Part shown: positions 1 through 64,000 of the stretch, piece by piece
Numbering within the stretch: the stretch's first letter is position 1
How the letters are laid out: the number at the start of each line of letters is the position of its first letter
Source of the DNA: Calliopsis andreniformis
Lineage: Eukaryota > Arthropoda > Insecta > Hymenoptera > Andrenidae
Length of the DNA stretch: 64,000 nt
Direction: 5' to 3'
NCBI RefSeq assembly: GCF_051401765.1
Contig: NW_027480450.1
Location: 1,488,001-1,552,000, forward strand
Notes under the pieces: generated by a model
The model's input: the letters and a program-made list of their open reading frames with translations, nothing else
The model's database searches: none
Told to the model about the DNA's origin: nothing
Translations under genes and position numbers: made by a program

Positions 1-118
1 CAATCTTCAATCCTCAATCCTCAGTCCTCAATCCTCAATTCTGAATCCTCAGTACTCAACCTTGAACCCTCAACCCTCAGTCCTCAATACTCAACCATCA
101 ATCCTCAATTCTCAATAC

Positions 119-194
119 TCAATGGAATATCCAGAATTCTCAGGATTCAATACTCAAACCTCAATCCTCAACTATCAGCCCTCATCCTCCATCC
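119..194 (+). repeat. Class a island (representative), AATATCC-TGAATTC-NCAGGAT type
   Basis: This is a recurrent degenerate stretch that keeps the 7-bp register: a word like TCAATGG or TCAATAG, then AATATCC, then AGAATTC or TGAATTC, then TCAGGAT or GCAGGAT, then ordinary words. It is followed by a TCAGCCC word and a 6-base TCATCC word, where the phase slips by one. The core holds an EcoRI site (GAATTC) and, in the TGAATTC-TCAGGAT version, short inverted arms TCCTGA and TCAGGA around ATTC. I located more than 40 copies. Examples, given by the base before AATAT, are 125, 1509, 4445, 6911, 9597, 11221, 12385, 13069, 14215, 15669, 15975, 18022, 19852, 21236, 24478, 29584, 30632, 32092, 33650, 34755, 38152, 41856, 43848, 46356, 48395, 50336, 50600, 51534, 53581, 54544, 57080, 62716 and 62980. 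Function is unknown. Confidence 0.85.
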
Positions 195-452
195 TCAATC
201 CTCAATCCTCAATCCTCAATCTTCAATCCTCAATTCTCAATCCTCAGTCATGAATACTCAATCTTCAATACTCATTCCTCAATCCTCTATACTCAATCCT
301 CAATCCTCAGTCCTCAATCCTCAATACTCAGCCGTCAATCCTCAATTCCCAATCCTCAATCCTCAATCCTCAACACTCAGCCGTCAATCCTCAATCCCCA
401 ATCCTCAATCCTCAATCCTCAATCCTCAATCCTCAATCCTCAATCCTCAGTC

Positions 453-592
453 ATGAATACTCAATCTTCAATACTCAATCCTCAATCCTCTATCCTCAAT
501 CCTCAGTCCTCAATACTCAATCGTCAATCCTCAATCCCCAATCCTCAATCTTCAATCTTCAATACTCAATCCTCAATCCTCAATCCTCAGTC
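453..592 (+). repeat. 140-bp sub-unit starting at TCATGA word (representative)
   Basis: A 20-word (140-bp) sub-unit starts at the word pair TCAGTCA-TGAATAC and runs to the next such pair. In A1 the ATG of TCATGA lies at 250, 453, 593, 831, 971, 1118 and 1258, giving spacings of 203, 140, 238, 140, 147 and 140, all multiples of 7. The same ladder recurs in H0, P1, P2, X1-X3, H1 and H2. It is an intermediate level between the 7-mer and the kilobase blocks. The ATG is not evidence of a gene start, because no ribosome-binding or coding signature accompanies it. Confidence 0.8.
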
Positions 593-3500
593 ATGAATAG
601 TCAATCTTCAATACTCAATCCTCAATCCTCTATCCTCAATCCTCAATCCCCAATCCTCAATCGTCAATCCTAAATCCCCAATCCTCAATCTTCAATCCTC
701 AATCCTCAATCCTCAATCCTCCATCCTCAATCTTCAATCCTCAGTCCTCAATACTCAATCGTCAATCCTCAATCCCCAATCCTCAATCTTCAATCTTCAA
801 TACTCAATCCTCAATCCTCAATCCTCAGTCATGAATACTCAATCTTCAATACTCAATCCTCAATCCTCTATCCTCAATCCTCAGTCCTCAATACTCAATC
901 GTCAATCCTCAATCCCCAATCCTCAATCTTTAATCTTCAATACTCAATCCTCAATCCTCAATCCTCAGTCATGAATAGTCAATCTTCAATACTCAATCCT
1001 CAATCCTCAATCCTCAACCATCATTCTTCAATCGTCAATACCCAATCCTCAATCTTCAATCCTCAATCCGCAATCCTAAATTCTCAATCCTCAATCCTCA
1101 ATCCTCAATCCTCAGTCATGAATACTCAATCTTCAATACTCAATCCTCAATCCTCTATCCTCAATCCTCAGTCCTCAATACTCAATCGTCAATCCTCAAT
1201 CCCCAATCCTCAACCTTCATTCTTCAATACCCAATCCTCAATCCTCAATCCTCAGTCATGAATAGTCAATCTTCAATACTCAATCCTCAATCCTCTATCC
1301 TCAATCCTCAATCCCCAATCCTCAATCGTCAATCCTAAATCCCCAATCCTCAATCCTCAATCCTCAATCGTCAATCGTCAGTCCTCAATCCTCAATCCTC
1401 AATCCTCGTTCTTCAAACCTCAATTCTCAACCCTCAGTCCTCATCCTCAATTCTCAATTCTCAATCTTCAATACTCAATCCTCAACCCTCAATACTCAAT
1501 ACACAATAGAATATCCTGAATTCGCAGGATTCAATACTCAAACATCAATCCTCATCCCTCAGCCCTCATCCTCCATCCTCGATCCTCAATCCTCAATCCT
1601 CAATCTTCAATCCCCAATACTCGATCTTCAACCTTCAATCCTGTATACTCAATCTTCAACACTCAATCCCCAATACTCAATCTTCAATCCTCAATGCTCA
1701 ATCCAAAATCCCCTATCCTCAGTCCTCAATCCTCAATCCTGAATCCTCAAACCTCGATCCTCAACCGTCAGTCCTCGTCCTCAACCCTAAAACCTCAATA
1801 CTCAATCATCTATACTCAATCTTCAACCCTCAATCCTCAATCCTCAATGCTCAATCCTCAATCCTCAATATTCAACACACAACCCTCAACCATCAATCCT
1901 CAATACTCAACCATCAATCCTCAATTCTCGATACTCAATAGAACATCCTGAAATCTCATGGTTCAATACTCAATCCACAATATACAATAATCAAACCTCA
2001 ATCCTCAAGCATAAATTCTCAACACTCAATCCTCAACACTCAGTCCTCTCTCTTGAATCCTCCATCCTCAATCCTCAATCCTCAACCGTCAATCCTCAAT
2101 CCTCAATCCTCAACCCTCAATCCTCAGTCCTCAAACCTCAATCCTCAACCCTCAATCCTCAGTCCTCAAACCTCAATCCCGTATCCTCAACACTGAATCC
2201 TCAATCTTCAGACCTCAGTCCTCAAAAATCAATTGTCAATCCTCAATCCTGAATAGAATATCCTCAATTCACAGTTTTCAATAATCAATCCCCATACTTC
2301 AATCTTCAAAACTCAATCCACAAACATCAATTCTCATCACTCAACCATCAACACTCAGTCCCCAATCCTCAATCTTCAATCCTCAATCTTCAATCCTCAA
2401 TATTCAATCCTAAATCCTCAATCCTCTATTCTCAATCCTCAATCCTCAATCCTCAATCTTCAATCCTCAGTCCCCAATCCTTAATCTTCAATCCTCAATC
2501 CTCAATCCTCAATCGTCAATCCTCAATCCTCAGTCCTCAATCCTCAATCCTCAATTCCCAATCCTCAACCCTCAATCCTCAGACCTCAAACATCAATACT
2601 CAACCCTCAGTCCTCGTCCTCAATCCACAACACTCAATACTCAATCCTCAATCTTCAATCATCAATATTCAATATTCAATCCCCAATCCTCAATCCTCAG
2701 TCCTCAATCCTCAGTCCTCAAACCTCAATCCTGAATCTTCAATCCTCAATACTCAATCCTCAATCCTCAATCCTCAATCCTCAATCTTCAATCCTCAGTC
2801 CCCAATCCTTAATCTTCAATCCTCAATCCTCAATCCTCAATCGTCAATCCTCAATCCTCAGTCCTCAATCCTCAATCCTCAACCCTCAATACTCAATCCT
2901 CGATCATCAATCCTCAATCTTCAATACTCAATCCTCAATCCTCAATCCTCAATCCTCAATCCTCAGTCCTCAATCCTCAATCGTCAATCCTCAATCCCCA
3001 ATCCTCAATCTTCAATCCTCAATGCTCAATCCTCAATCCTCAATCCTCAACCTTCAATCCTCAATACTCAATCTTCAATCCTCAGTCCTCAATCCTCAAT
3101 CCTCAATTCTCAATCCTCAACCCTCAATCCTCAGACCTCAAACATCAATACTAAACCCTCAGTCCTCGTCCTCAACCCACAACCCTCAATACTCAATCCT
3201 CAACCTTCAATCATCAATATTCAATATTCAATCCTCAATCCTCAATCCTCAGTCCTCAATCCTCAGTCCTCAAACCTCAATCCTGAATCCTCAAACCTGA
3301 ATCCTCAATCTTCAGCCCCCAGTCCTCAACAATCAGTTGTCAACCCTCAATCCTCAATAGAATAACCTCAATTCACAGCTTTCAATACTCAATACTCTAT
3401 CTGCAACCTTCAGATCTCTATCCACAAACATCCATTCTCGTCACTCAACCCTCAACACTCAGTCCCCAATCCTCAATCTTCAATCCTCGATCCTCAATCC

Positions 3501-5061
3501 TCAATCCTCAACCGTCAATCTTGAATCCTGAATATTGAATCTTCAATCCACAATCCTCAATCCCCAATCCTCAGCCCTCATCCTTCAATCCTCAATACCC
3601 AATCCTCAATCTTCAATCCTCAATCCTCAATCCTCAATCCTCAATCCTCAATCTTCAATCCTCAATACTCAATCTTCAATCCTCAGTCCTCAGTCCCCAA
3701 ACCTCAACTCTGAATCCTCAATCCTGAATCCTCAATCTTCAGCCCTGAGTCCTCAACGATTAGTTGTCAATCCTCAATCCTCAATAGAACATCCTCAATT
3801 CACAGTTTTCAATAATGAATACTCAATCTGCAATCTTCAATCCTGAATACTCAATCTTCAATCCTCAATCCTCAGCCCTCAAACCTCAGTTCTGGATCCT
3901 CAATACTGAATCCTCAACCTTCAGCGCTCAGTCCTCAACAATCAGTTGTCAATCCTCAATCCTCAATAGAATATCCTCTATTCACAGTTTTCAATACTCA
4001 ATACTCAATCTGCAATCTTCAAATCTCTATCCACAAACATCAATTCTCATCACTCAACCCTCAACACTCAGTCCTCAATGTTCAATCCTCAATCCTAAAT
4101 TCTCAATCTTCAATTCTCAATACTGTATCTTCAATCCTCAATCCTCAATCCTCAATCCTCAATCCTCAGTCCCCAATCCTCAGTCCTCAATCCTCAATCC
4201 TCAATCCTCAATCCTCAATCCTCAATCCTCAATCCTCAGTCATCAATCCTCAATCTTCAATCCTCAATCCCCAGTCCTCAATCTGCAATCCTCAATGCTC
4301 AATCCTCAATCCTCAAGCCTCAGTCCTCAATCCTCAAACATCAATCCTCAAACCTCAATTCTGAATCCTCAATACTCAATCTTCAACCCTCAATCCTCAG
4401 TCCTCAATACTCAACCATCAATACTCAATTCTCAATACTCAATAGAATATCCTGAATTCGCAGGATTCAATACTCAACCCTCAATCCTCAACCCTCAGCC
4501 CTCATCCTCCATCCTCGATCCTCAGCCCTCATCCTCAATCCTCAATACTCAATCGTCAATCCTCAACCTTCAATCCTCAATACTCAATCTTCAATTCTCA
4601 ATCCTCAGTCCTCAATTCTCAATCCTCAATCCTCAATGCTCAATCCTCAACCGTCAGTCTTCAATCCTCAATACTCAATCTTCAATCCTCAATCCTCAAT
4701 CCTCAATCCTCAATCCTCATTCCTCAATCCTCAATACCCAATCCTCAGTCTTCAACCCATAATCCTCAATCCTCAATTCTCAATTCTCAATCCTCAGTCC
4801 TCAGTCCTCAAACCTCAATCCTCAAACCTCAGCCATCATCCTCAATCCCCAATCCTCAATCCTCAATCCTCAACCCTTAATCCTCAATCCTCAGTATTCA
4901 ACACACAACCCTCAACCATCAATCCTCAATACTCAACCATCAATCCTCAATTCTCAATACTCAATAGAATATCCTGAATTCTCATGGCTCTGAACTCAAT
5001 CCACAATATCCAATAATCAAATCTCAATCCTCAAAGACCAATTCTCAACACTCAATCCTCA

Positions 5062-6767
5062 GTCATGGATACTCAATCTTCAATACTCATTCCTCAATCC
5101 TCAATACTCAATCCTCAATCCTCAGTCCTCAATCCTCAATACTCAGCCGTCAATCCTCAATCCCCAATCCTCAATCCTCAATCCTCAATCCTCAATCCTC
5201 AATCCTCAATCCTCAGTCATGAATACTCAATCTTCAATACTCAATCCTCAATCCTCTATCCTCAATCCTCAGTCCTCAATACTCAATCGTCAATCCTCAA
5301 TCCCCAATCCTCAATCTTCAATCTTCAATACTCAATCCTCAATCCTCAATCCTCAGTCATGAATAGTCAATCTTCAATACTCAATCCTCAATCCTCTATC
5401 CTCAATCCTCAATCCCCAATCCTCAATCGTCAATCCTAAATCCCCAATCCTCAATCTTCAATCCTCAATCCTCAATCCTCAATCCTCCATCCTCAATCTT
5501 CATTCCTCAGTCCTCAATACTCAATCGTCAATCCTCAATCCCCAATCCTCAACCTTCAATCTTCAATACTCAATCCTCAATCCTCAATCCTCAGTCATGA
5601 ATACTCAATCTTCAATACTCAATCCTCAATCCTCTATCCTCAATCCTCAGTCCTCAATACTCAATCGTCAATCCTCAATCCGCAATCCTCAATCTTCAAT
5701 CTTCAATACTCAATCCTCAATCCTCAATCCTCAGTCATGAATACACAATCTTCAATACTCAATCCTCAATCCTCTATCCTCAATCCTCAATCCCCAATCC
5801 TCAATCGTCAATCCTCAATCCCCAATCCTCAATCTTCAATCCTCAATCCTCAATTCTCAATCCTCCATCCGCAATCTTCAATCCTCAATACTCAATCTTC
5901 ACTGCTCAATTCTCAATCCTCAATCCTTAATCCCCAATCCTCAATCCTCAATCCTCAATCCTCAATCATCAATCCTCAACACTCAATCTTCAATCCTCAG
6001 TCCTCAATTCTCAATTCTCAATTCTCAATTCTCAATCCTCAATCCTCAATCCTCAAGCGTCAATCTTCAATCCTGAATATTCAATCCTCAATCCTCAATC
6101 CTCAATCCTCAATCCTCAACCCTCATTCTTCAATCCTCAATACCCAATCCTCAATCTTCAATCCTCAATCCTCAATCCTCAATTCTCAATCCTCAATCCT
6201 CAGTCCTCAGTCCTCAATCCTCAGTCCCCAACCGTCAGCCCTCATCCTCAATCCTCAAACGTCAATCCTCAATCCTCAATCTTCAATCCTCAATACTCAA
6301 CCTTCAATCCTCAAACCTCAGTCCTCAAACCCCAATTCTGAATCCTCAATCCTGAATCCTCAATCTTCAGCCCTCAGTCCTCAACAATCAGATGTCAATC
6401 CTCAATCCTCAATAGAATATCCTCAATTCACAGTTTTCAATACTCAATACTCCATCTGCAATCTTCAAATCTCTATCCACAAACATCAATCCTCTTCACT
6501 CAACCCTCAACACTGAGTCCTCAATGTTCAATCCTCAATCCTCAATTCTCAATCTTCTATCCTCAATACTGAATCTTCAATCCTCAATCCTCAATCCTCA
6601 ATCCTCAATCCTCAATCTCCAATCCTCAGTCCCCAATCCTTAATCTTCAATCCTGAATCCTCAATCCTCAATCCTCAATCCTCAATCCTCAGTCCTCAGT
6701 CCCCAAACCTCAATCCTCAACCCTCAGACCTCATCCTCAATCCTCAATCCTCAATCCTCAATCCTCA
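5062..6767 (+). repeat. Higher-order block G1
   Basis: The block begins at a GTCATGGATAC word that recurs 1,971 bp later (ATG at 5,065 and 7,036), so the sequence up to about 7,660 is a direct repeat. It is collinear with 40,021-42,360 in X2: the offset is 34,959 at 5,065 and 5,737, then 34,945 at 6,908. The 14-bp step is two extra TTCTCAA words near 6,010-6,040. It also matches 32,490-34,150 in X1. It carries a class c island at 6,415. There is no gene. Confidence 0.8.
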
Positions 6768-10423: not shown

Positions 10424-12330
10424 ATGCTGAATATTCAATCTTCAATCCTCAATCCTCAATCCTCACTCCTCAACCCTCATTCTTCAATCGTCAATACCCA
10501 ATCCTCAATCTTCAATCCTCAATCCGCAATCCTAAATTCTCAATCCTCAATCCTCAGTCCTCAGTCCTCAATCCTCAGTCCTCAACCCTCAGCCCTCATC
10601 CTCAACCCTCAATCCTCAATCCTCAATCCTCAATCTTCAATGCTCAATACTCAACCTTCAATCCTCAATCCTCAGTCCTCAACCCTCAATCCTCAATCCT
10701 CAGTCGTCAGTCTCCAAGCCTCAATCCTCAACCCTCAGACCTCATCCTCAATCCTCAATCCTCAATCCTCAATCCTCAATCTTCAATCCTCAATACTCAA
10801 TCTTCAATCCTCAATCCTTAGTCCACAATCCTCAATTCTGAATCCTCAATACTCAATCTTCAATCATCAACACTCAATCCTCAATCCTCAATCCTCAATC
10901 CTCAGACCTCAAACATCAATACTCAACCCTCAGTCCTCGTCCTTAATCCAAAACCCTCAATACTCAATACTCAATCTTCAATCATCAATATTCAATATTC
11001 AATCCTCAATCCTCAATCCTCAGTCCTCAATCCTCAATCTTCAATCCTCAATGCTCAATCTTCAATCCTCAGTCCTCAATTCTCAATCATCAACCCTCAA
11101 TCATCAGACCTCAAACATCAATACTCAACCCTCAGTCCTCGTCCTCAATCCACAACCCTCAATCCTCAATCCTTAATACTCAATACTCAACCATCAATCC
11201 TCAGTTCTCAATACTCAATGGAATATCCTGAATTCTCAGGGTTCGATAATCAAACCTCAATCCTCAACCATCAGCCCTCATTCTCAATCCTCAATCCTCA
11301 ATCCTCAATCCTCAATATTCAATCCTCAATACTCAATCTTCAATCCACAATACTCAATCCTCAATCCTCAGTCCTCAATCCTCAGTCATCAATCCTCAAT
11401 CTTCAATACTCAATCGTCAATCGTCAGTCCTCAATCCTCAATCCTCAATCCTCGTTCCTCAAACCTCAATCCTCAACCCTCAGTCCTCATCCTCAATTCT
11501 CAATTCTCAATCTTCAATACTCAACCCTCAATTGTCAATTCTCTGTCCTCAATACTCAACCATCAATACTGAATTCTCAATACACAATAGAATATCCTGA
11601 ATTCGCAGGATTCAATACTCAAACCTCGATCCTAAACCCTCAGCCCTCATCCTCCATCCTCGATCCTCAGCCCTCACCCTCAATCCTCAATAATCAATCC
11701 TCAATACTCAATCCTCAATCGTCAATCTTCAATCCTGCATATTTAATCCTCAATACTCAATCCTCAATCCTCAATCCTCAACCCTCATTCTTCAATCCTC
11801 AATACGCAATCCTCAATCTTCAATCCCCAATCCTCAATCCTCAATCCTCAATCCTCAATCCTCAGTCCTCAGTCCCCAAACCTCAATCCTCAACCCTCCG
11901 ACCTCATCCTCAATCCTCAATCCTCAATCCTCAATCCTCAATCCTCAATACTGAATCTTCAATCCTCAATCCTCAATCCTCAATCCTCAATCCTCAATCC
12001 TCAATCTTCAATCCTCAATACTCAACCTTCAATCCTCAATCCTCAGTCCTCAAACGTCAATTCTGAATCCTCAATCCTGAATCCTCAATCTTCAGCCCTC
12101 AGTCCTCAACAATCAGTTGTCAATCCTCAATCCTCAATAGAATATCCTCAATTCACAGTTTTCAATACTCAATACTCCATCTGCAATCTTCAAATCTCTA
12201 TCCACAAACATCAATTCTCTTCACTCAACCCTCAACACTGAGTCCTCAATGTTCAACCCTCATTCCTCAATTCTCAATCTTCAATCCTCAATACTGAATC
12301 TTCAATCCTCAATCCTCAATCCTCAATCCT
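10424..12330 (+). repeat. Mosaic heptamer segment between H0 and P1
   Basis: The segment is heptamer array throughout, but I could not align it end to end with any single other block. It holds class a islands at 11,221 (with a variant GGGTTCGATAA follow-on related to the island at 50,336) and 11,590, and a class c island at 12,140. Short runs match P, E and X type sequence. It looks like a patchwork of pieces found elsewhere. No gene or foreign insertion is visible. Confidence 0.7.
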
Positions 12331-14460
12331 CAATTCTCAATCCTCAATACTCAACCATCAATACTGAATTCTCAATACACAATAGAATATCCTGAATTCG
12401 CAGGATTCAATACTCAAACCTCAATCCTAAACCCTCAGCCCTCATCCTCCATCCTCGATCCTGAGCCCTCATCCTCAATCCTCAAACGTCAATCCTCAAT
12501 CCTCAATCTTCAATCCTCAATACTCAACCTTCAATCCTCAATCCTCAGTCCTCAAACCTCAATTCTGAATCCTCAATCCTGAATCCTCAACCTTCAGCCC
12601 TCAGTCCTCAACAATCAGTTGTCAATCCTCAATCCTCAATAGAATATCCTCAATTCACAGTTTTCAATACTCAATACTCCATCTGCAATCTTCAAATCTC
12701 TATCCACAAACATCAATTCTCTTCACTCAACCCTCAACACTGAGTCCTCAAAGTTCAATCCTCAATCCTCAATTCTCAATCTTCAATCCTCAATACTGAA
12801 TCTTCAATCCTCAATCCTCAATCCTCAATCCTCAATCCTCAATCCTCAATCTTCAATCCTCAGTCCCCAATCCTTAATCTTCAATCCTGAATCCTCAATC
12901 CTCAATCCTCAATCCTCAATCCTCAATCTTCAATCCTCAATACTCAATCTTCAATCCTCAATCCTCAGTCCTCAATCCTCAATTCTGAATCCTCAATAAT
13001 CAATCTTCAACCCTCAACCCTCAGTCCTCAATACTCAACCATCAATCCTCAATTCTCAATACTCAATAGAATATCCAGAATTCTCAGGATTCAATACTCA
13101 AACCTCAATCCTCAACCATCAGCCCTCATCCTCCATCCTCAATCCTCAATCCTCAATCCTCAATCTTCAATCCTCAATACTCAATCCTCAGTCATGAATA
13201 CTCAATCTTCAATACTCATTCCTCAATCCTCTATACTCAATCCTCAATCCTCAGTCCTCAATCCTCAATACTCAGCCGTCAATCCTCAATCCCCAATCCT
13301 CAATTCTCAATCTTCAATCCTCAGTCATGGATACTCAATCTTCAATACTCAATCCTCAATCCTCTATCCTCAATCCTCAGTCCTCAATACTCAATCGTCA
13401 ATCCTCAATCCGCAATCCTCAATCTTCAATCTTCAATACTCAATCCTCAATCCTCAATCCTCAGTCATGAATACACAATCTTCAATACTCAATCCTCAAT
13501 CCTCTATCCTGAATCCTCAATCCCCAATCCTCAATCGTCAATCCTCAATCCCCAATCCTCAATCTTCAATCCTCGATCCTCAATTCTCAATCCTCCATCC
13601 GCAATCTTCAATCCTCAATACTCAATCTTCACTGCTCAATTCTCAATCCTCAATCCTTAATCCCCAATCCTCAATCCTCAATCCTCAATCTTCAATCCTC
13701 AACACTCAATCTTCAATCCTCAGTCCTCAATTCTCAATCCTCAATCCTCAATCCTCAATCGTCAATCTTCAATCCTGAATATTCAATCCTCAATCCTCAA
13801 TCCTCAATCCTCAATCCTCAACCCTCATTCTTTAATCCTCAATACCCAATCCTCAATCTTCAATCCTCAATCCTCAATCCTCAATCCTCAATTCTCAATC
13901 CTCAATCCTCAGTCCTCAGTCCTCAATCCTCAGTCCCCAACCGTCAGCCCTCATCCTCAATCCTCAAACGTCAATCCTCAATCCTCAATCTTCAATCCTC
14001 AATACGCAACCTTCAATCCTCAAACCTCAGTCCTCAAACCCCAATTCTGAATCCTCAATCCTCAATCCTCAATCTTCAATCCTCAATACTCAATCTTCAA
14101 TCCTCAATCCTCAGTCCTCAATCCTCAATTCTGAATCCTCAGTACTCAACCTTGAACCCTCAACCCTCAGTCCTCAATACTCAACCATCAATCCTCAATT
14201 CTCAATACTCAATGGAATATCCAGAATTCTCAGGATTCAATACTCAAACCTCAATCCTCAACTATCAGCCCTCATCCTCCATCCTCAATCCTCAATCCTC
14301 AATCCTCAATCTTCAATCCTCAATTCTCAATCCTCAGTCATGAATACTCAATCTTCAATACTCATTCCTCAATCCTCTATACTGAATCCTCAATCCTCAG
14401 TCCTCAATCCTCAATACTCAGCCGTCAATCCTCAATTCCCAATCCTCAATCCTCAATCCT

Positions 14461-14600
14461 CAATACTCAGCCGTCAATCCTCAATCCCCAATCCTCAATC
14501 CTGAATCCTCAATCCTCAATCCTCAATCCTCAATACTCAGCCGTCAATCCTCAATCCCCAATCCTCAATCCTCAATCCTCAATCCTCAATCCTCAATCCT
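14461..14600 (+). repeat. 70-bp tandem duplication (10 words) private to P1
   Basis: The string around CAATACTCAGCCGTC occurs twice here, at about 14,461 and 14,531, 70 bp apart. The corresponding places in A1 (about 371) and P2 (about 20,098) have it once. The duplication is exactly ten 7-bp words, so register is preserved. One copy has gained a TGAATCC word. It is a recent local event, since it splits otherwise near-identical blocks. Confidence 0.85.
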
Positions 14601-15668
14601 CAATCCTCAGTCATGAATACTCAATCTTCAATACTCAATCCTCAATCCTCTATCCTCAATCCTCAGTCCTCAATACTCAATCGTCAATCCTCAATCCCCA
14701 ATCCTCAATCTTCAATCTTCAATACTCAATCCTCAATCCTCAATCCTCAGTCATGAATAGTCAATCTTCAATACTCAATCCTCAATCCTCTATCCTCAAT
14801 CCTCAATCCCCAATCCTCAATCGTCAATCCTAAATCCCCAATCCTCAATCTTCAATCCTCAATCCTCAATCCTCAATCCTCCATCCTCAATCTTCAATCC
14901 TCAGTCCTCAATACTCAATCGTCAATCCTCAATCCCCAATCCTCAATCTTCAATCTTCAATACTCAATCCTCAATCCTCAATCCTCAGTCATGAATACTC
15001 AATCTTCAATACTCAATCCTCAATCCTCTATCCTCAATCCTCAGTCCTCAATACTCAATCGTCAATCCTCAATCCCCAATCCTCAATCTTTAATCTTCAA
15101 TACTCAATCCTCAATCCTCAATCCTCAGTCATGAATAGTCAATCTTCAATACTCAATCCTCAATCCTCAATCCTCAACCATCATTCTTCAATCGTCAATA
15201 CCCAATCCTCAATCTTCAATCCTCAATCCGCAATCCTAAATTCTCAATCCTCAATCCTCAATCCTCAATCCTCAGTCATGAATACTCAATCTTCAATACT
15301 CAATCCTCAATCCTCTAACCTCAATCCTCAGTCCTCAATACTCAATCGTCAATCCTCAATCCCCAATCCTCAACCTTCATTCTTCAATACCCAATCCTCA
15401 ATCCTCAATCCTCAGTCATGAATAGTCAATCTTCAATACTCAATCCTCAATCCTCTATCCTCAATCCTCAATCCCCAATCCTCAATCGTCAATCCTAAAT
15501 CCCCAATCCTCAATCCTCAATCCTCAATCGTCAATCGTCAGTCCTCAATCCTCAATCCTCAATCCTCGTTCTTCAAACCTCAATTCTCAACCCTCAGTCC
15601 TCATCCTCAATTCTCAATTCTCAATCTTCAATACTCAATCCTCAACCCTCAATACTCAATACACAATA

Positions 15669-23597: not shown

Positions 23598-25094
23598 CAA
23601 TCCTCAGCCCTCATCCTTCAATCCTCAATACCCAATCCTCAATCTTCAATCCTCAATCCTCAATCCTCAATCCTCAATCCTCAATCTTCAATCCTCAATA
23701 CTCAATCTTCAATCCTCAGTCCTCAGTCCCCAAACCTCAACTCTGAATCCTCAATCCTGAATCCTCAATCTTCAGCCCTGAGTCCTCAACGATTAGTTGT
23801 CAATCCTCAATCCTCAATAGAACATCCTCAATTCACAGTTTTCAATAATGAATACTCAATCTGCAATCTTCAATCCTGAATACTCAATCTTCAATCCTCA
23901 ATCCTCAGCCCTCAAACCTCAGTTCTGGATCCTCAATACTGAATCCTCAACCTTCAGCGCTCAGTCCTCAACAATCAGTTGTCAATCCTCAATCCTCAAT
24001 AGAATATCCTCTATTCACAGTTTTCAATACTCAATACTCAATCTGCAATCTTCAAATCTCTATCCACAAACATCAATTCTCATCACTCAACCCTCAACAC
24101 TCAGTCCTCAATGTTCAATCCTCAATCCTAAATTCTCAATCTTCAATTCTCAATACTGTATCTTCAATCCTCAATCCTCAATCCTCAATCCTCAATCCTC
24201 AGTCCCCAATCCTCAGTCCTCAATCCTCAATCCTCAATCCTCAATCCTCAATCCTCAATCCTCAATCGTCAGTCATCAATCCTCAATCTTCAATCCTCAA
24301 TCCCCAGTCCTCAATCTGCAATCCTCAATGCTCAATCCTCAATCCTCAAGCCTCAGTCCTCAATCCTCAAACATCAATCCTCAAACCTCAATTCTGAATC
24401 CTCAATACTCAATCTTCAACCCTCAATCCTCAGTCCTCAATACTCAACCATCAATACTCAATTCTCAATACTCAATAGAATATCCTGAATTCGCAGGATT
24501 CAATACTCAACCCTCAATCCTCAACCCTCAGCCCTCATCCTCCATCCTCGATCCTCAGCCCTCATCCTCAATCCTCAATACTCAATCGTCAATCCTCAAC
24601 CTTCAATCCTCAATACTCAATCTTCAATTCTCAATCCTCAGTCCTCAATTCTCAATCCTCAATCCTCAATGCTCAATCCTCAACCGTCAGTCTTCAATCC
24701 TCAATACTCAATCTTCAATCCTCAATCCTCAATCCTCAATCCTCAATCCTCATTCCTCAATCCTCAATACCCAATCCTCAGTCTTCAACCCACAATCCTC
24801 AATCCTCAATTCTCAATTCTCAATCCTCAGTCCTCAGTCCTCAAACCTCAATCCTCAAACCTCAGCCATCATCCTCAATCCCCAATCCTCAATCCTCAAT
24901 CCTCAACCCTTAATCCTCAATCCTCAGTATTCAACACACAACCCTCAACCATCAATCCTCAATACTCAACCATCAATCCTCAATTCTCAATACTCAATAG
25001 AATATCCTAAATTCTCATGGCTCTGAACTCAATCCACAATATCCAATAATCAAATCTCAATCCTCAAAGACCAATTCTCAACACTCAATCCTCA
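23598..25094 (+). repeat. P2 extension shared with A1 (3,565-5,061)
   Basis: The constant offset of 20,033 to A1 continues past the end of the P period through landmarks 23,848 (A1 3,815), 24,478 (4,445), 24,669 (4,636) and 25,000 (4,967). It stops at about 25,094, where A1 switches to G-type words and this copy runs on into Z1. Class c islands lie at 23,820 and 24,002, a class a island at 24,478 and a class b island at 25,000. I saw only scattered substitutions between the copies. Confidence 0.83.
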
Positions 25095-26606
25095 ACACTC
25101 AGCCCTCTCTCTTCAATCCTCCATCCTCAACCCTCAATCCTCAAGCGTCAATCCTCAATCCTCAATCCTCAACCCTCAATCCTCAGTCCTCAAACCTCAA
25201 TCCCGAATCCTCAATCCTGAATCCTCAATCTTCAGACCTCTGTCCTCAAAAATCAATTGTCAATCCTCAATTCTCAACAGAATATCCTAAATTCACAGTT
25301 TTCAATACTCAGTCCCCATTCTTCAATCTTCAAATCTCAATCCACAAACATCAATTCTCATCACTCAATACTCCACACTCAGTCCTCAACCTTCAATCCT
25401 CAATCCTCAATCCTCAGTCTTCAATACTCAATACTCAATCTTCAATCCTCGACCCTCAATTCTCAATCCTCAATACTCAATCCTCAATCGTCAATCCTCA
25501 ATCCCCAATCCTCAATCTTCATTTCTCAATCCTCAGGCTTCAATCCTCAATACTCAATCTTCAATCCGCAATCCTCAATCCTCAACCCTCAATCCTCATT
25601 CTTCAATACTCAATACCAAATCCTCAAACTTCAATCCTCAATCCTCAATCCTCAAACCTCAGACCTCATCCTCAATCCTCAATCCTCAATCCTCAGTCCA
25701 CAATTGTCAATCCCCAATACTCAATCTTCAATCCTCAATCCTCAGTCCTCAAACCTCAATTCTGAATCCTCAATACTCAATCTTCAACCCTCAATCCTCA
25801 GTCCTCAGTCCTCAAACCTCAATCCTCAAACCTCAGCCCTCAAACCTCAATCCTCAAACCTCAGCCCTCATCCTCAATCCTCAATCCTCAATCCTCAATC
25901 TTCAATCCTCAATACTCAATCTTCAATCCTCAGTCCTCAGTCCCCAAACCTCAACTCTGAACCCTCAATCCTGAATCCTCAATCTTCAGCCCTCGGTCCT
26001 CAACAATCAGTCTTCAATACTCAATCCTCAATAGAATATCCTCAATTCAGAGTATTCAATACTCAATACTCAATCTGCAATCTTCAAACCTCCATCCACA
26101 AACATCAATTCTCATCACTCGACCCTCAACACTCAGTCCTCAATGTTCAATCCTCAATCCGAAATTCTCAATCTTCAATTCTCAATACTGCATCTTCAAT
26201 CCTCAATCCTCAATCCTCAGCCCTCATTCTCAATCCTCAATCCTCAATCCTCAACGCTCAATATTCAATCCTCAATACTCAATCTTCAATCCTCAATCCT
26301 CAATCCTCAATCCTCAATCCTTAATCCTCAGTCATCAACCTGCAATCCTCAATGCTCAATCCTCAATCCTCAAGCCTCAGACCTCAATCCTCAATCCTCA
26401 ATCCTCAAACCTCAATACTCAACCGTCAGTCCTCGTCCTCAATCCTCAACCCTCAATACTCAATCCTCAATTTTTCAATCATCAATACTCAGTCTTCAAT
26501 CCTCAATCCTCAATCCTCAATCCTCAATCCTCAATATTCAACACACAACCCTCAACCATCAATCCTCAATACTCAATCATCAATCCTCAATTCTCAATAC
26601 TCAATA
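25000..26606 (+). repeat. Higher-order block Z1 (1.6-kb triplet)
   Basis: Z1 is counted from its class b island at 25,000 to the next at 26,607, a period of 1,607 bp. A class c island with a CAACAGAATATCC start lies at 25,280 and another class c island at 26,034. The final part (about 26,220 onward, continuing into Z2 to about 26,870) is collinear with 29,640-30,290 in X1 at a constant offset of 3,417, so Z and X share a component. It is non-coding array. Confidence 0.82.
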
Positions 26607-29390: not shown

Positions 29391-30017
29391 CAATCCTCAA
29401 TACTCAATCCTCAATCCTCAATCTTCAATCCTCAATACTCAATCTTCAATCCTCTACCTCAATCCTCAATCCTCAATCCTCAATCCTAAATCATCAAACC
29501 TCAATCTTCAATACTCAATCCTCAATCCTCAATCCTCAATCCTCAATACTCAACCATCAATACTCAATTCTCAATACTCAATAGAATATCCTGAATTCTC
29601 AGGATTCAATACTCAAACCTCAACCCTCAACCCTCAGCCCTCATTCTCAATCCTCAATCCTCAATCCTCAACGCTCAATATTCAATCCTCAATACTCAAT
29701 CTTCAATCCTCAGTCCTCAATCCTCAATCCTCAATCCTGAATCCTCAGTCATCAACCTGCAATCCTCAATGCTCAATCCTCAATCCTCAAGCCTCAGACC
29801 TCAATCCTCAATCCTCAATCCTCAAACCTCAATACTCAACCGTCAGTCCTCGTCCTCAATCCTCAACCCTCAATACTCAATCCTCAATTTTTCAATCATC
29901 AATACTCAGTCTTCAATCCTCAATCCTCAATCCTCAATCCTCAATCCTCAATATTCAACACACAACCCTCAACCATCAATCCTCAATACTCAATCATCTA
30001 TCCTCAATTCTCAATAC

Positions 30018-47757: not shown

Positions 47758-48470
47758 TTCTCAATCCTCAATCCTCAGCCCTAAGTCCTCAATCCTCAGA
47801 CCTCAACCCTCAGCCCTCATCCTCAATCCTCAATACTCAATCCTCAATACTCAATCTTCAAACCTCTATCCACAAACATCAATTCTCATCACTCAACCCT
47901 CAACACTCAGTCCTCAATGTTCAATCCTCAATCCTCAATTCTCAATCTTCAATCCTCAATACTGAATCTTCAATCCTCAATCCTCAATCCTCAATCCTCA
48001 ATCCTCAATCCTCAATCCTCAATCCTCAATCCTCAATCTTCAACCCTCAGTCCCCAATCCTTAATCTTCAATCCTCAATCCGCAATCCTCAATCGTCAAT
48101 CCTCAGTCATCAATCCTCAATCTTCAATACTCAATCGTCAATCGTCAGTCCTCAATCCTCAATCCTCAATCCTCAATCATCAATCCTCAGTCATCAATCC
48201 TCAATCTTCAATACTCAATCGTCAATCGTCAGTCCTCAATCCTCAATCCTCAATCCTCGTTCCTCAAACCTCAATCCTCAACCCTCAGTCCTCATACTCA
48301 ATTCTCAATTCTCAAACTTCAATACTCAATCCTCAATCCTCAATTCCCAATCCTCAATACTCAAGCATCAATACTCAATTCTCAATACACAATAGAATAT
48401 CATGAATTCGCAGGATTCAATACTCAAACCTCAATCCTAAACCCACAGCCCTCATCCTCCATCCTCGATC
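47758..48470 (+). repeat. Mosaic segment between D1 and E1, with an 84-bp duplication
   Basis: The first 330 bp match 49,675-49,990 inside E1 (CTAAGTCCTC at 47,781 and 49,701, offset 1,920). Next, a string starting CAGTCATCAATCC occurs at 48,104 and 48,188, 84 bp (12 words) apart. A class a island is at 48,395. Everything is heptamer array and nothing gene-like is present. Confidence 0.75.
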
Positions 48471-51367
48471 CTCAGCCCTCATCCTCAATCCTCAATACAC
48501 AATCCTCAACCCTCAATCTTCAATCCTCAACACTCAATATTCAATCCTCAATCCTCGGTCCTCAAACCTCAATTCTGTATCCTCAACACTGAATTCTCAA
48601 TCTTCAGCCCTCAGGCCTCAACAATCAGTTGTCAATCCTCAATCCTCAATAGAATATCCCCAATTCACAGCTTTCAATACTCAATACTCAATCTGCAATC
48701 TTCAAATCTCTATCCACAAACATCAATCCTCATCACTCATCCCTCAACACTCAGTCCTCAATGTTCAATCCTCAATTCTCAATTCTCAATCTTCAAACCT
48801 CAATACTGAATCATCAATCCTCAATCCTCAATCCTCAATCCTCAATCCTCAGCCCTCAATCCTCAATCATCAATCATCAATCCTCAATCTTCAATACTCA
48901 ATCCTCAATCCTCAATCCTCAATCCTCAGTCCTCAATACTCAATCGTCAATCCTCAATCCCCAATACTCAATCTTCAATCCTCAATCCTCAATCCTCAAT
49001 CCTCAATCCACAATCTTCAATCCTCAATACTCAATCTTCACTCGTCAATTCCCAATCCTCAATCCTTAATCCCCAATCCTCAATCCTCAATCTTCGACCC
49101 TCAATACTCAATCTTCAATCCTCAGTCCTCAATCCTCAATCCTCAATTCTTAATCCTCAACCCTCAATCCTCAGACCTCAAACATCAATACTCAACCCTC
49201 AGTCCTCGTCCTCAATCCACAACCCTCAATACTCAATCCTCAATCTTCAATCATCAATATTCAATATTCAATCCTCAATCCTCAATCCTCAGTCCTCAAT
49301 CCCCAGTCTTCAAACCTCAATCCTGAATCCTCAAACCTGAATCCTCAATCTTCAGCCCCCAGTCCTAAACAATCAGTTGTCAATACTCAATCCTCAATAG
49401 AATAACCTCAATTCACAGTTTTCAATACTCAATACTCTATCTGCAATCTACAAATCTCTATGCACAAACATCAATTCTCGTCACGCAACCCTCAACACTC
49501 AGTCCCCAATCCTCAATCTTCAATCCTCGATCCTCAATCCTCAATCCACAATCGTCAACCTTCAATCCTGAATATTCAATCTTCAATCCACAATCCTCAA
49601 TCCTCAATCCTCATCCCTCATCCTTCAATCCTCAATACCCAATCCTCAATCTTCAATCCTCAATCCCCAATCGTCAATTCTCAATCCTCAATCCTCAGCC
49701 CTAAGTCCTCAATCCTCAGTCCTCAGCCCTCAGCCCTCATCCTCAATCCTCAATACTCAATCCTCAATACGCAATCTTCAAATCTCTATCCACAAACATC
49801 AATTCTCATCACTCAACCCTCAACACTCAGTCCTCAATGTTCAATCCTCAATCCTCAATTCTCAATCTTGCATCCTCAATACTGAATCTTCAATCCTCAA
49901 TCCTCAATCCTCAATCCTCAATCCTCAATCCTCAATCTTCAATCCTCAGTCCCCAATCCTTAATCTTCAATCCTCAATCCGCAATCCTCAATCGTTAATC
50001 CTCAATCCTCAGCCCTCAGTTCCCAAACCTCAATCCTCAACCCTCAGACCTCATCCTCAATCCTCAATCCTCAATCCTCAATCCTCAATCCTCAATCTTC
50101 AACACTCAATACTCAATCTTTAACCCTCAATCCTCAGTCCTCAATCCTCAATTCTGAATCCTCAATACTCAATCTTCAACACTTAATCCTCAGTCCTCAA
50201 TACTCGAATATCAATCCTCAATTCTCAATACTCAATCCTAAATCAACAATCCTCAATCTTCAATACTCAATCCTCAATCCTCAATCCTCAATACTCAATA
50301 CTCAACCATCAATCCTCAGTTCTCAATACTCAATGGAATATCCTGAATTCTCAGGATTCGATACTCAAACCTCAATCCTCAACCCTCAGCCCTCATTCTC
50401 AATCCTCAATCCTCAATCCTCAGTCATCAATCCTCAATCTTCAATACTCAATCGTCAAACGTCAGTCCTCAATCCTCAATCCTCAATCCTCAATCCTCGT
50501 TCCTCAAACCTCAATCCTCAACCCTCAGTCCTCATCCTCAATTCCCAATTCTCAATCTTCAATACTCAATCCTCAACCCTCAATTTTCAATACACAATAG
50601 AATATCCTGAATTCGCAGGATTCAATACTCAAACCTCAATCCTCAACCCTCAGCCCTCATCCTCCATCCTCGATCCTCAGCCCTCATCCTCAATCCTCAA
50701 TACACAATCCTCAATCCTCAATCTTCAATCCTCAATCATCAATCATCAATCCTCAATCTTCAATACTCAATCCTCAATCCTCAATCGTCAATCCTCAATC
50801 CTCAATCCTCAATCCTCAATCATCAATCCTCAATCTTCAATAATCAGTTCTCAATCCTCAATCCTCAATCCTCAATACTCAACCATCAATCCTCAATTCT
50901 TCAATACTCAATAGAATATCCTGAATCCTCAAGATTCGATACTCAAACCTCAAACCTCAACCCTCAGCCCTCATTCTCAATCCTCAATCCTCAATCCTCA
51001 ATCGTCAATATTCAATCCTCAATACTCAATCTTCAATCCTCAATACTCAATACTCAATCCTCAATCCTCAATCCTCAATCCTCAGTCATCAATCCTCAAT
51101 CTTCAATACTCAATCGTCAATCGTCAGTCCTCAATCCTCAATCCTCAATCCTCGTTCCTCAAACCTCAATCCTCAACCCTCAGGCCTCATCCTCAATTCT
51201 CAATTCTCAATCTTCAATACTCAATCCTCAATCCTCAATCCTCAATTCCCAATCCTCAATACTCAACCATCAATACTCAATTCTCAATACACAACAGAAT
51301 ATCCTGAATTCGCAGGATTCAATACTCAAACCTCAATCCTAAACCCTCAGCCCTCATCCTCCATCCT
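48471..51367 (+). repeat. Higher-order block E1
   Basis: E1 is collinear with E2 (60,858-63,747). The offset is 12,387 in the left part (48,494 and 48,761) and 12,380 in the right part (50,333, 50,600 and 51,297), a difference of one word. Class a islands are at 50,336, 50,600, 50,914 (diverged, CTCAAGATTCG) and 51,297. It ends in TCATCC-TCCATCC; E1 then enters H1 while E2 goes on toward D3. No coding signal is present. Confidence 0.85.
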
Positions 51368-60198: not shown

Positions 60199-60857
60199 TC
60201 CTCAATCCCCAATCCTCAATCTTCAATCCTCAATGCTCAATCCTCAATCCTCAATCCTCAACCTTCAATCCTCAATACTCAATCTTCACTCCTCAATTCC
60301 CAATCCTCAATCCTTAATCCCCAATCCTCAGTCCTCAATCTTCAATCCTCAATACTCAATCTTCAATCCTCAGTCCTCAATCCTCAATCCTCAATTCTCA
60401 ATCCTCAACCTACAATCCTCAGACCTCAAACATCAATACTCAACCCCCAGTCCTCGTCCTCAACCCACAGCCCTCAATACTCAATCCTCAATCTTCAACC
60501 ATCAATATTCAATATTCAATCCTCAATCCTCAAACCTCAGTCCTCAATCCTCAGTCCTCAAACCTCAATCCTGAATCTTCAATCCTCAATCCTCAATCCT
60601 CAATCCTCAATCCTCAATCCTCAATCTTCAATCCTCAGTCCCCAATCCTTAATCTTCAATCCTCAATCCTCAATCCTCAATCGTCAATCCTCAATCCTCA
60701 ATCTTCAATCCTCAATGCTCAATCCTCAATCCACAATCCTCAATCCTCAATCCTCAACCCTCATTCTTCAATCCTCAATACCCAATCCTCAATCTTCAAT
60801 CCTCAATCCCCAATCGTCAATTCTCAATCCTCAATCCTCAGCCCTAAGTCCTCAATC
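60199..60857 (+). repeat. Mosaic segment between D2 and E2
   Basis: The segment is heptamer array with a TCAATGC word at about 60,233, like the A-type string at 3,022. A CAACCTACAATCC variant and a CTAAGTCC string near 60,844 match 47,781 and 49,701. The pieces are short and I could not assign one source block. There is no gene. Confidence 0.7.
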
Positions 60858-63747
60858 CTCAGCCCTCATCCTCAATCCTCAATACACAATCCTCAATCCT
60901 CAATCTTCAATCCTCAACACTCAATATTCAATCCTCAATCCTCGGTCCTCAAACCTCAATTCTGTATCCTCAACACTGAATTCTCAATCTTCAGCCCTCA
61001 GGCCTCAACAATCAGTTGTCAATCCTCAATCCTCAATAGAATATCCCCAATTCACAGCTTTCAATACTCAATACTCAATCTGCAATCTTCAAATCTCTAT
61101 CCACAAACATCAATCCTCATCACTCATCCCTCAACACTCAGTCCTCAATGTTCAATCCTCAATTCTCAATTCTCAATCTTCAAACCTCAATACTGAATCT
61201 TCAATCCTCAATCCTCAATCCTCAATCCTCAATCCTCAACCCCCAATCCTCAATCATCAATCATCAATCCTCAATCTTCAATACTCAATCCTCAATCCTC
61301 AATCCTCAATCCTCAGTCCTCAATACTCAATCGTCAATCCTCAATCCCCAATACTCAATCTTCAATCCTCAATCCTCAATCCTCAATCCTCAATCCACAA
61401 TCTTCAATCCTCAATACTCAATCTTCACTCGTCAATTCCCAATCCTCAATCCTTAATCCCCAATCCTCAATCCTCAATCTTCGACCCTCAATACTCAATC
61501 TTCAATCCTCAGTCCTCAATCCTCAATCCTCAATTCTTAATCCTCAACCCTCAATCCTCAGACCTCAAACATCAATACTCAACCCACAGTCCTCGTCCTC
61601 AAACCACAACCCTCAATACTCAATCCTCAATCTTCAATCATCAATATTCAATATTCAATCCTCAATCCTCAATCCTCAGTCCTCAATCCCCAGTCTTCAA
61701 ACCTCAATCCTGAATCCTCAAACCTGAATCCTCAATCTTCAGCCCCCAGTCCTAAACAATCAGTTGTCAATACTCAATCCTCAATAGAATAACCTCAATT
61801 CACAGTTTTCAATACTCAATACTCTATCTGCAATCTACAAATCTCTATGCACAAACATCAATTCTCGTCACGCAACCCTCAACACTGAGTCCCCAATCCT
61901 CAATCTTCAATCCTCGATCCTCAATCCTCAATCCACAATCGTCAACCTTCAATCCTGAATATTCAATCTTCAATCCACAATCCTCAATCCTCAATCCTCA
62001 TCCCTCATCCTTCAATCCTCAATACCCAATCCTCAATCTTAAATCCTCAATCCCCAATCGTCAATTCTCAATCCTCAATCCTCAGCCCTAAGTCCTCAAT
62101 CCTCAGTCCTCAGCCCTCAGCCCTCATCCTCAATCCTCAATACTCAATCCTCAATACGCAATCTTCAAATCTCTATCCACAAACATCAATTCTCATCACT
62201 CAACCCTCAACACTCAGTCCTCAATGTTCAATCCTCAATCCTCAATTCTCAATCTTGCATCCTCAATACTGAATCTTCAATCCTCAATCCTCAATCCTCA
62301 ATCCTCAATCCTCAATCCTCAATCTTCAATCCTCAGTCCCCAATCCTTAATCTTCAATCCTCAATCCGCAATCCTCAATCGTTAATCCTCAATCCTCAGC
62401 CCTCAGTTCCCAAACCTCAATTCTCAACCCTCAGACCTCATCCTCAATCCTCAATCCTCAATCCTCAATCCTCAATCTTCGACACTCAATACTCAATCTT
62501 CAACCCTCAATCCTCAGTCCTCAATCCTCAATTCTGAATCCTCAATACTCAATCTTCAACACTCAATCCTCAGTCCTCAATACTCGAAAATCAATCCTCA
62601 ATTCTCAATACTCAATCCTAAATCAACAATCCTCAATCTTCAATACTCAATCCTCAATCCTCAATCCTCAATACTCAATACTCAACCATCAATCCTCAGT
62701 TCTCAATACCCAATGGAATATCCTGAATTCTCAGGATTCGATACTCAAACCTCAATCCTCAACCCTCAGCCCTCATTCTCAATCCTCAATCCTCAATCCT
62801 CAGTCATCAATCCTCAATCTTCAATACTCAATCGTCAAACGTCAGTCCTCAATCCTCAATCCTCAATCCTCAATCCTCGTTCCTCAAACCTCAATCCTCA
62901 ACCCTCAGTCCTCATCCTCAATTCCCAATTCTCAATCTTCAATACTCAATCCTCAACCCTCAATTTTCAATACACAATAGAATATCCTGAATTCGCAGGA
63001 TTCAATACTCAAACCTCAATCCTCAACCCTCAGCCCTCATCCTCCATCCTCGATCCTCAGCCCTCATCCTCAATCCTCAATACACAATCCTCAATCCTCA
63101 ATCTTCAATCCTCAGTCATCAATCATCAATCCTCAATCTTCAATACTCAATCCTCAATCCTCAATCGTCAATCCTCAATCCTCAATCCTCAATCCTCAAT
63201 CATCAATCCTCAATCTTCAATAATCAGTTCTCAATCCTCAATCCTCAATCCTCAATACTCAACCATCAATCCTCAATTCTTCAATACTCAATAGAATATC
63301 CTGAATCCTCAAGATTCGATACTCAAACCTCAAACCTCAACCCTCAGCCCTCATTCTCAATCCTCAATCCTCAATCCTCAATCGTCAATATTCAATCCTC
63401 AATACTCAATCTTCAATCCTCAATACTCAATACTCAATCCTCAATCCTCAATCCTCAATCCTCAGTCATCAATCCTCAATCTTCAATACTCAATCGTCAA
63501 TCGTCAGTCCTCAATCCTCAATCCTCAATCCTCGTTCCTCAAACCTCAATCCTCAACCCTCAGGCCTCATCCTCAATTCTCAATTCTCAATTCTCAATCT
63601 TCAATACTCAATCCTCAATCCTCAATTCCCAATCCTCAATACTCAACCATCAATACTCAATTCTCAATACACAACAGAATATCCTGAATTCGCAGGATTC
63701 AATACTCAAACCTCAATCCTAAACCCTCTGCCCTCATCCTCCATCCT
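60858..63747 (+). repeat. Higher-order block E2
   Basis: E2 is the second copy of E1 in the same orientation. Islands at 62,716, 62,980, 63,294 and 63,677 correspond to 50,336, 50,600, 50,914 and 51,297. Near 63,575 it has one extra TTCTCAA word that E1 lacks, balanced by one word fewer shortly after. It leaves the common sequence at about 63,747. Confidence 0.85.
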
Positions 63748-63825
63748 CGATCCTCAGCCCTCATCCTCAATCCTCAATACTCAATCCTCAATCCTCAGTC
63801 TTCAATCCTCAACACTCAATATTCA

Positions 63826-64000
63826 ATCCTCAATATTCAATCCTCAATACTAAATCTTCAATCCACAATCCTCAATCCTCAATCCTCAATCCTCTGTCAT
63901 CAATCCTCAATCCTCAATACTCAATCGTCAATCCTCAGTCCTCAATACACAATCCTCAATCCTCGTTCCTCAAACTTCAATCCTCAACCCTCAGTCCTCA
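63826..64000 (+). repeat. Start of a third D copy (D3), cut by the window edge
   Basis: From the CAATATTCAATCC string at about 63,831 the words follow D1 from 47,011 (ATTCAATCCTC at 63,834, offset 16,823) and D2 from 59,438, up to the last base. The first 200 bp of the D block are missing, so E2 joins D inside the block. The array continues beyond the window. Confidence 0.8.

What the first reader, a model, noticed from the sequence alone, without database searches (positions are those of the whole stretch)
1..64000. A gene-free 7-bp satellite of at least 64 kb with four nested repeat levels
The sequence shows a 7-bp word level, a 140-bp sub-unit level, recurrent islands and kilobase blocks (1.6, 1.96, 3.0, 5.6, 6-8 and 12.4 kb). 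Short-unit satellites are usually simple; multi-level higher-order structure on a 7-bp base is uncommon. If the host is a bacterium, an array of this size would be exceptional compared with known STRR heptamers. Host and function are unknown.
Basis: partly seen in the sequence, partly recalled or inferred. Interest (0 to 1): 0.8.

Follow-up and report, generated by a model that had tools for sequence, protein, structure and literature searches.

The report
Giant seven-letter satellite in a bee
The window is a small slice of a multi-megabase array of a degenerate seven-base DNA repeat that appears to fill about a third of the 1-billion-base genome assembly of an unnamed bee; repeats of this kind are known, but this one is unusually large and unusually well assembled.

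Summary
All 64 kb are a degenerate (TCAATCC)n satellite: 85.8% identity to consensus, no Rfam hit, no Pfam hit in the 3 of 35 ORFs tested. The 140-bp level is local, and the blocks form no regular higher-order repeat.

The host is not a bacterium: the window lies in a 1.019-Gb, 489-contig genome whose COX1 copies group with Andrena bees. On contig C41 the satellite, on one strand, was found at every position sampled from base 1 to 5.06 Mb. Two estimates give about 335-370 Mb, a third of the assembly.

Best explanation: structural heterochromatin of elongated chromosome arms, grown by recombination joined in heptamer register. It resembles Drosophila virilis 7-bp satellites in scale and human HSat2,3 in architecture: a new variant of a known kind. 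Most novel lead: some arrays abut a near-identical island flanked by inverted mitochondrial DNA, possibly a centromere landmark.

The parts
1..64000 (+). Degenerate (TCAATCC)n satellite; a piece of an array found at every position sampled from C41:1 to C41:5,060,070, all on the + strand
   Evidence: (1-20000 only)
1509..1532 (+). Example of the 24-bp island, dyad-like form GAATATCCTGAATTCGCAGGATTC (103 islands in the window at 6 or fewer mismatches)
25279..25303 (+). Example of a second island form (AGAATATCCTAAATTCACAGTTTTC), which lacks the dyad
201..1200 (+). Local stretch with a 140-bp sub-unit (lag-140 identity of 0.85 or more in 500-bp windows starting 201-701)
1428..5148 (+). Block duplicated at 21461-25181 (lag 20033, 98.6%)
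32211..35612 (+). Block duplicated at 40417-43818 (lag 8206, 98.5%)
29346..32651 (+). Block duplicated at 43610-46915 (lag 14264, 98.4%)
12209..14674 (+). Block duplicated at 17846-20311 (lag 5637, 97.9%)
48429..50179 (+). Block duplicated at 60816-62566 (lag 12387, 96.9%)
24867..26234 (+). Block duplicated at 26474-27841 (lag 1607, 95.9%)

Best explanation
The window is part of a major, probably heterochromatic, satellite of a bee genome. A 7-bp repeat (TCAATCC) has been expanded to about 335-370 Mb, a third of the assembly, in arrays that reach megabases, lie mostly outside the twelve first, chromosome-scale scaffolds, and keep one strand orientation over at least 5 Mb on C41. Shown: the degenerate heptamer, the recurring 24-bp island, nested block duplications of 1-20 kb, indels almost always of one base, and duplication edges that avoid the islands and show little excess of phase changes. 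Inferred: growth by homologous recombination (unequal exchange, gene conversion or template switching) that pairs heptamer with heptamer, so joins stay in register; rounds of block amplification then write longer units over a decaying 7-bp base. Its most likely role is passive structural heterochromatin building the long arms of pseudo-acrocentric chromosomes, with no sequence-specific product.
For: Host: own genome and size; the COX1 of C89 is 83-86% identical to its nine best hits, Andrena and allied clusters, and sits in a starred 11-row clade (98/95) with 9 Andrena-group rows, in a tree of 37 of the 120 listed proteins plus two own copies. Native to the bee: on C7 the heptamer runs straight into non-heptamer DNA (L160); C10 has heptamer at its first base and a TTAGGTCTGGG telomere at its last; COX1 copies lie on contigs that also carry heptamer, such as C111, C153, C178 and C203. 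Extent on C41: 20 of 20 10-kb blocks; 18 of 20 500-bp samples, the other 2 another satellite at the right end; heptamer still at 5.06 Mb. Amount: random samples gave heptamer in 2/20, 0/12 and 18/28 in strata of 238.5, 246.5 and 531 Mb, 365 Mb (265-460); 10,122,693 exact TCAATCCTCAATCC 14-mers (control 2) over their edge-corrected density in sampled heptamer DNA give 334 Mb (267-447) or 369 Mb (278-546). Mechanism: 827 of 832 phase changes in 264 kb are single-base; 35 of 302 block breakpoints lie within 15 bp of a phase change (11.6%, chance 8.9%), 33 of the 35 single-base; 1.0% lie within 25 bp of an island against 8.2% in shifted controls. Arms: telomere at one end of 9 of 10 large scaffolds; the other end of those nine is one further satellite in 6, heptamer in C10, another short repeat in C6 and unassigned in C7 (by eye).
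Against: No chromatin, cytology, read-depth or Hi-C data were available, so 'heterochromatin' and 'arm' are inferred. Amounts rest on 60 random 150-bp samples; contigs 431-489 (about 4 Mb) were not sampled, and positions on contigs of unknown length were drawn only up to a lower bound. Using the density of C41 itself the 14-mer count would give 524 Mb, so arrays differ. Similarity does not fall smoothly with distance: copies of 1500-2300 are 92-99% alike within about 60 kb, 88% at 75-120 kb, 95% at 140-180 kb, 92-98% at about 0.75 Mb, and 83-86% at the left end of C41, no better than on other contigs (84-92%), so simple local exchange is not the whole story. Islands differ less between block copies than the rest (ratio 0.58, 0.45-0.74), which leaves room for constraint on them. 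Edges were found on ungapped diagonals and each junction is counted in both copies.
Confidence: 0.8

Rival explanations
1. Assembly inflation: the satellite is real, but its megabase length, the nested blocks or the genome share are partly artefacts of assembling and scaffolding repeats.
For: C41 is exactly 5,386,000 bp and starts inside the repeat, as if cut at a bin edge by a scaffolder (inference). Another bee assembly, Xylocopa violacea, is 1.02 Gb against a predicted 672 Mb (passages of PMC11589580).
Against: Most block copies differ by 1-7%, which reads can separate; heptamer was found on 38 contigs by samples or pattern hits. The two size estimates agree, but both come from the same assembly and cannot exclude inflation.
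Confidence: 0.12
2. The heptamer array is the centromere core, binding the centromeric histone, and was expanded by centromere drive.
For: Very abundant, with megabase arrays of one polarity and near-identical copies; some islands have a weak dyad (-3.7 kcal/mol, z -1.6).
Against: Far more DNA than a centromere needs; C1-C5, C9 and C12 end in a different satellite (7 of 10 scaffolds sampled; by eye) and only C10 ends in the heptamer; no 14-mer hit is listed for C1-C3 or C6 in a list of the first 100 places that appears to run in contig order and reaches C7; another island class lacks the dyad.
Confidence: 0.07
3. It is largely carried by supernumerary or nearly gene-free chromosomes (B-like).
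For: Scaffold C11 (20.6 Mb) was satellite at 11 of 11 positions sampled between 0.05 and 19 Mb (seven of them by eye).
Against: C10 joins heptamer (to 4.3 Mb) to non-satellite sequence at 5 and 13.4 Mb and a telomere; at 20.248 Mb C11 itself carries non-satellite DNA.
Confidence: 0.06
4. The open forward frames encode a heptad-repeat protein.
For: Forward ORFs of up to 528 aa.
Against: All forward frames of the perfect repeat lack a stop; no Pfam match in 3 of 3 ORFs tested; single-base indels shift the frame freely.
Confidence: 0.01

Closest known systems
Drosophila virilis 7-bp simple satellites (40% of the genome; passages of PMC10783647)
   Same: Same unit length, insect host, similar genome share, arrays of several megabases.
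   Different: Different sequence; the virilis satellites are largely excluded from assemblies (same passages) and highly uniform (recalled), whereas this one is about 14% off consensus, carries islands and nested kilobase blocks, and is assembled.
Human satellites 2 and 3 (HSat2,3; passages of PMC4022460)
   Same: Diverged arrangement of a very short unit, kilobase higher-order units (1.77 kb, 3.6 kb), multi-megabase arrays, subfamilies.
   Different: 5-bp CATTC base, about 1.5% of the human genome; here 7 bp and about a third of the assembly; block lags in the window are irregular.
Satellite-rich genome of the carpenter bee Xylocopa violacea (passages and outline with abstract of PMC11589580)
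   Same: 1.02-Gb bee assembly, mostly repeats, inferred pseudo-acrocentric chromosomes with long heterochromatic arms.
   Different: There the main units are 109- and 217-mers and the assembly has 1300 scaffolds; here the heptamer and a ~166-bp satellite dominate and there are 489 contigs.
Bacterial short tandemly repeated heptamers (STRR; name recalled)
   Different: Tracts are tens of bases, median 58 and maximum 366 bp in the 80 loci returned; no relation by descent is implied.

Membership tests
Satellite DNA (tandem, non-coding, megabase arrays) | Long head-to-tail arrays of one unit | tested here: met
   264 kb of C41 decode as heptamer at 83.9-87.1% identity per piece; the worst 60-bp windows are 38-40% mismatched and the eight printed are islands; every position sampled from 1 bp to 5.06 Mb
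Satellite DNA (tandem, non-coding, megabase arrays) | Heterochromatic location | not testable with these tools
   Only indirect: 18 of 28 random samples on C25 and later contigs against 2 of 20 on C1-C12, both on C11
Drosophila virilis-type 7-bp simple satellite | 7-bp unit making up tens of per cent of the genome | tested here: met
   About 335-370 Mb of 1,019 Mb by two methods on the same assembly
Drosophila virilis-type 7-bp simple satellite | Sequence kinship with the virilis heptamers (AAACTAC and variants, recalled) | tested here: not met
   Consensus CAATCCT is no rotation or complement of AAACTAC; seen by eye
HSat2,3-like architecture | Diverged very short base unit overlaid by kilobase higher-order units | tested here: met
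   14.2% off consensus; block lags 1.6-20 kb covering 91.9%; maximum 84.4% in one simulated array
Regular higher-order repeat (alpha-satellite style) | One multi-unit block repeated head to tail at a constant period | tested here: not met
   Many different lags, none dominant in the window; lag 140 is local
Telomeric repeat | Terminal arrays, G-rich strand running to the chromosome end | tested here: not met
   Telomere is TTAGGTCTGGG at one end of 9 of 10 scaffolds sampled; heptamer at the C10 left end has the G-rich strand running inwards
Bacterial STRR heptamer | Bacterial host, short tract | tested here: not met
   1.019-Gb genome with bee COX1 copies; array of about 5 Mb

The most novel reading that the evidence does not exclude
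The arrays may be anchored by a conserved, polarised junction module that is the centromere or an arm-building landmark. On 8 contigs two outward-facing mitochondrial COX1 copies lie 38-74 kb apart (96 of 308 candidates scored). I sampled 7 of the 8; in the 5 that border the heptamer the order is always CATAGC satellite (+), non-satellite island, heptamer (+). Two 90-bp probes from the island hit 17 satellite-type contigs in union at 98-100%, and on 11 of them lie 7,735-7,748 bp apart. That is a near-identical non-satellite island on many contigs, flanked by satellites as in Drosophila centromere islands, but edged by inverted mitochondrial DNA. Against it: one probe also hits C1, C5, C7 and C12 at 98-99%, so part of the island is a dispersed element; recent duplication or assembly duplication would look the same; one island per arm was not tested.
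Probability: 0.15. Interest if true: 0.85.

Novelty: new variant of a known kind. Interest (0 to 1): 0.52.

Why it matters
Genomes dominated by short-unit satellites are known, but such arrays are usually too uniform to assemble. Here divergence lets megabases be read at base level, so how a 7-bp word grows into kilobase blocks (register of joins, placement of edges, similarity against distance) can be measured directly. It would also be a very large satellite expansion for a bee and bears on how pseudo-acrocentric bee chromosomes acquire long heterochromatic arms. The conserved mitochondrial-DNA-flanked junction island makes a testable candidate for a bee centromere or arm anchor.

Tried and rejected
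Islands as breakage hotspots: rejected; block edges are depleted near islands (1.0% against 8.2% within 25 bp). Islands as conserved hairpins: weak; fold z-scores are -1.6 for one form and -0.7 for another, and a common second class lacks the dyad. Coding heptad protein: rejected. Telomere-derived repeat: rejected (TTAGGx5 has no match genome-wide). Xylocopa violacea as the host: not supported, since that assembly has 1300 scaffolds and a 109-mer and COX1 falls with Andrena. Size from perfect six-unit runs (800-980 Mb) and from exact islands (46-49 Mb) disagreed, because run homogeneity and island density vary between arrays; both were dropped. Literature checks for this satellite: 'satellite DNA' + Hymenoptera + heptamer returned 2 papers (listing seen; by title and abstract not about it); a satellite-and-bee search returned 59, of which 15 were listed, none by title on this satellite; Andrenidae + 'satellite DNA' returned none. 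One heptamer-shuffle null (maximum 0.47) is uninformative, because the window's phase changes break the cut into sevens.
Full report
Where the window lies. It is C41:1488001-1552000 of a genome of 1,019,246,659 bases in 489 contigs. A search for COX1 found 96 scored mitochondrial-type copies of 308 candidates. Two of them, translated in the invertebrate code, have long COX1 frames with ND2-like frames beside them, and one a COX2-like frame (ND2 and COX2 named by eye). The C89 copy is 83-86% identical to its nine best protein hits, Andrena and allied bee clusters; in a tree of 39 rows (37 of the 120 listed proteins and two own copies) the two own rows join 9 Andrena-group rows in a starred clade (98/95). 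Nine of 10 large scaffolds sampled end in TTAGGTCTGGG, a motif reported from many aculeates (passages of PMC10632776).

The array. In the window 85.8% of bases match the heptamer, with 184 phase changes. The same holds for 200 kb more of C41 (20 of 20 blocks of 10 kb; per-piece identity 83.9-87.1%). In these 264 kb no stretch lacks the heptamer; the worst 60-bp windows are 38-40% mismatched and the eight printed are islands, so no transposon insertion was seen. Of 20 further 500-bp samples across C41, 18 (1 bp to 5.0 Mb) are heptamer on the + strand and 2 (5.25 Mb and the right end) are a different satellite; the change lies between 5.06 and 5.12 Mb.

Nested levels. Islands: 103 in the window and 372 in the other 200 kb at 6 or fewer mismatches, against 0-2 in each of 20 shuffles of the window; mismatch counts in the window are bimodal. 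The exact 29-base island pattern occurs 16,228 times genome-wide, reversed control 0. Blocks: 178 segments at 95% or more over 500 bp cover 91.9% of the window; the longest are 3.7, 3.4 and 3.3 kb at lags 20033, 8206 and 14264. One simulated array with the same position-wise substitution rates but independent units reached at most 84.4%. The 140-bp unit shows in at least 60 of 636 windows. Beyond the window, copies of 1-1000 recur at up to 100% both nearby and about 0.7 Mb away, and at 80-88% on C47, C82 and C194. Copies of 1500-2300 are 92-99% alike within about 60 kb, 88% at 75-120 kb, 95% at 140-180 kb, 92-98% at about 0.75 Mb and 83-86% at the left end of C41; other contigs give 84-92%. 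Only the 40 best candidates are scored per search. Similarity is thus patchy, not a smooth decay.

Amount. Contig lengths seen, interpolated, sum to 1,016 Mb. Of 60 random 150-bp samples, heptamer was found in 2 of 20 (C1-C12, both on C11), 0 of 12 (C13-C24) and 18 of 28 (C25-C430; contigs 431-489, about 4 Mb, were not sampled, and positions on contigs of unknown length were drawn up to a lower bound), giving 365 Mb (265-460). A fixed-position set gave 1 of 12, 0 of 9 and 14 of 19. The 14-mer TCAATCCTCAATCC occurs 10,122,693 times (reversed control 2); each start uses at least 7 new bases, so 71 Mb is a floor; with its edge-corrected density in the 20 random and 15 fixed heptamer samples the estimate is 334 Mb (267-447) and 369 Mb (278-546). 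C41's own density would give 524 Mb. About a third of the assembly is the fair statement. A second satellite of about 166 bp takes about 255 Mb by the same random samples; one 24-mer of it occurs 242,802 times.

How it grows. Of 832 phase changes in 264 kb, 827 are single-base. Block edges show little excess of phase changes (35 of 302 within 15 bp, 11.6% against 8.9%; some excess is expected because ungapped blocks end at indels), and are rare near islands (1.0% against 8.2% within 25 bp). Random end joining would change phase at most joins. I infer recombination that pairs heptamers in register within plain repeat, copying islands whole. Islands differ less between copies than the rest (1.86% against 3.19%; ratio 0.58, 0.45-0.74); this may be constraint, low mutability or slippage noise in the heptamers, and I do not claim function.

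Arms and polarity. Nine of 10 large scaffolds sampled have a telomere at one end. The other end is one further satellite in C1, C2, C4, C5, C9 and C12, another short repeat in C6, heptamer in C10, and unassigned in C7; C3 has that further satellite at one end and no telomere (kinship by eye). C10 is heptamer from its first base, on the - strand at all its listed places up to 3.27 Mb (capped lists), on the + strand at 3.7 and 4.3 Mb, with non-satellite sequence at 5 Mb. This fits the pseudo-acrocentric model described for Xylocopa (passages of PMC11589580).

The junction module. Outward-facing COX1 pairs 38-74 kb apart occur on C11, C24, C86, C111, C119, C153, C154 and C227. I sampled seven of these (not C154). 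Between the pairs the DNA is not heptamer or the ~166-bp satellite in 7 of 7. C86, C111, C119, C153 and C227 have heptamer on one side and CATAGC satellite (by eye) on the other, with one polarity in 5 of 5 (chance 1 in 16). C24 has the ~166-bp satellite in place of heptamer; on C11 only the CATAGC side was sampled close by, the ~166-bp satellite lying at 19 Mb. Two island probes hit 13 and 15 contigs of this class at 98-100% (17 in union) and are 7,735-7,748 bp apart on the 11 that carry both; one probe also hits C1, C5, C7 and C12 at 98-99%. By eye some island samples look like retroelement gag and integrase. Drosophila centromeres are retroelement islands flanked by satellites (abstract of PMC6516634); whether this is one is untested.

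Verdict.

Noticed in passing
G000 contigs C276, C304, C364, C374, C381: A COX1 fragment (profile 158-433) recurs about every 11.6 kb, mostly with identical scores: a tandem array that includes mitochondrial DNA.
   Followed up: partly
G000 C11, C24, C86, C111, C119, C153, C154, C227: Outward-facing mitochondrial COX1 pairs 38-74 kb apart around a non-satellite island, with heptamer or the ~166-bp satellite on one side and CATAGC satellite on the other in the contigs sampled on both sides.
   Followed up: partly
L069-L077, L079 and others; G000 C13-C24: A second dominant satellite of about 166 bp, about 255 Mb by random samples.
   Followed up: partly
L081, L092, L153; L130, L132, L155; L111, L156: Further degenerate short-unit satellites in the same genome: CATAGC-based, CTGACACTGCTC-like and ATAATC-like, the last two by eye.
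   Followed up: partly
L055, L056, L135, L148; G000 C41 from between 5.06 and 5.12 Mb: A satellite with a unit of about 44-46 bp (CACGAACGGGGACTTAGAATTTTTTCGCTCGGGCTCCGGAGCGA) follows the heptamer on C41.
   Followed up: no
L177-L196: Telomere motif TTAGGTCTGGG at one end of 9 of 10 scaffolds sampled; TTAGG x5 has no match in the genome.
   Followed up: yes
G000 C11: A 20.6-Mb scaffold that was satellite at 11 of 11 sampled positions between 0.05 and 19 Mb.
   Followed up: partly
   Followed up: partly
L159, L160; G000 C7:1871400-1872940: A small heptamer cluster on C7 grades into a CAAGCCTCAA variant on one side and abuts non-heptamer DNA on the other.
   Followed up: no
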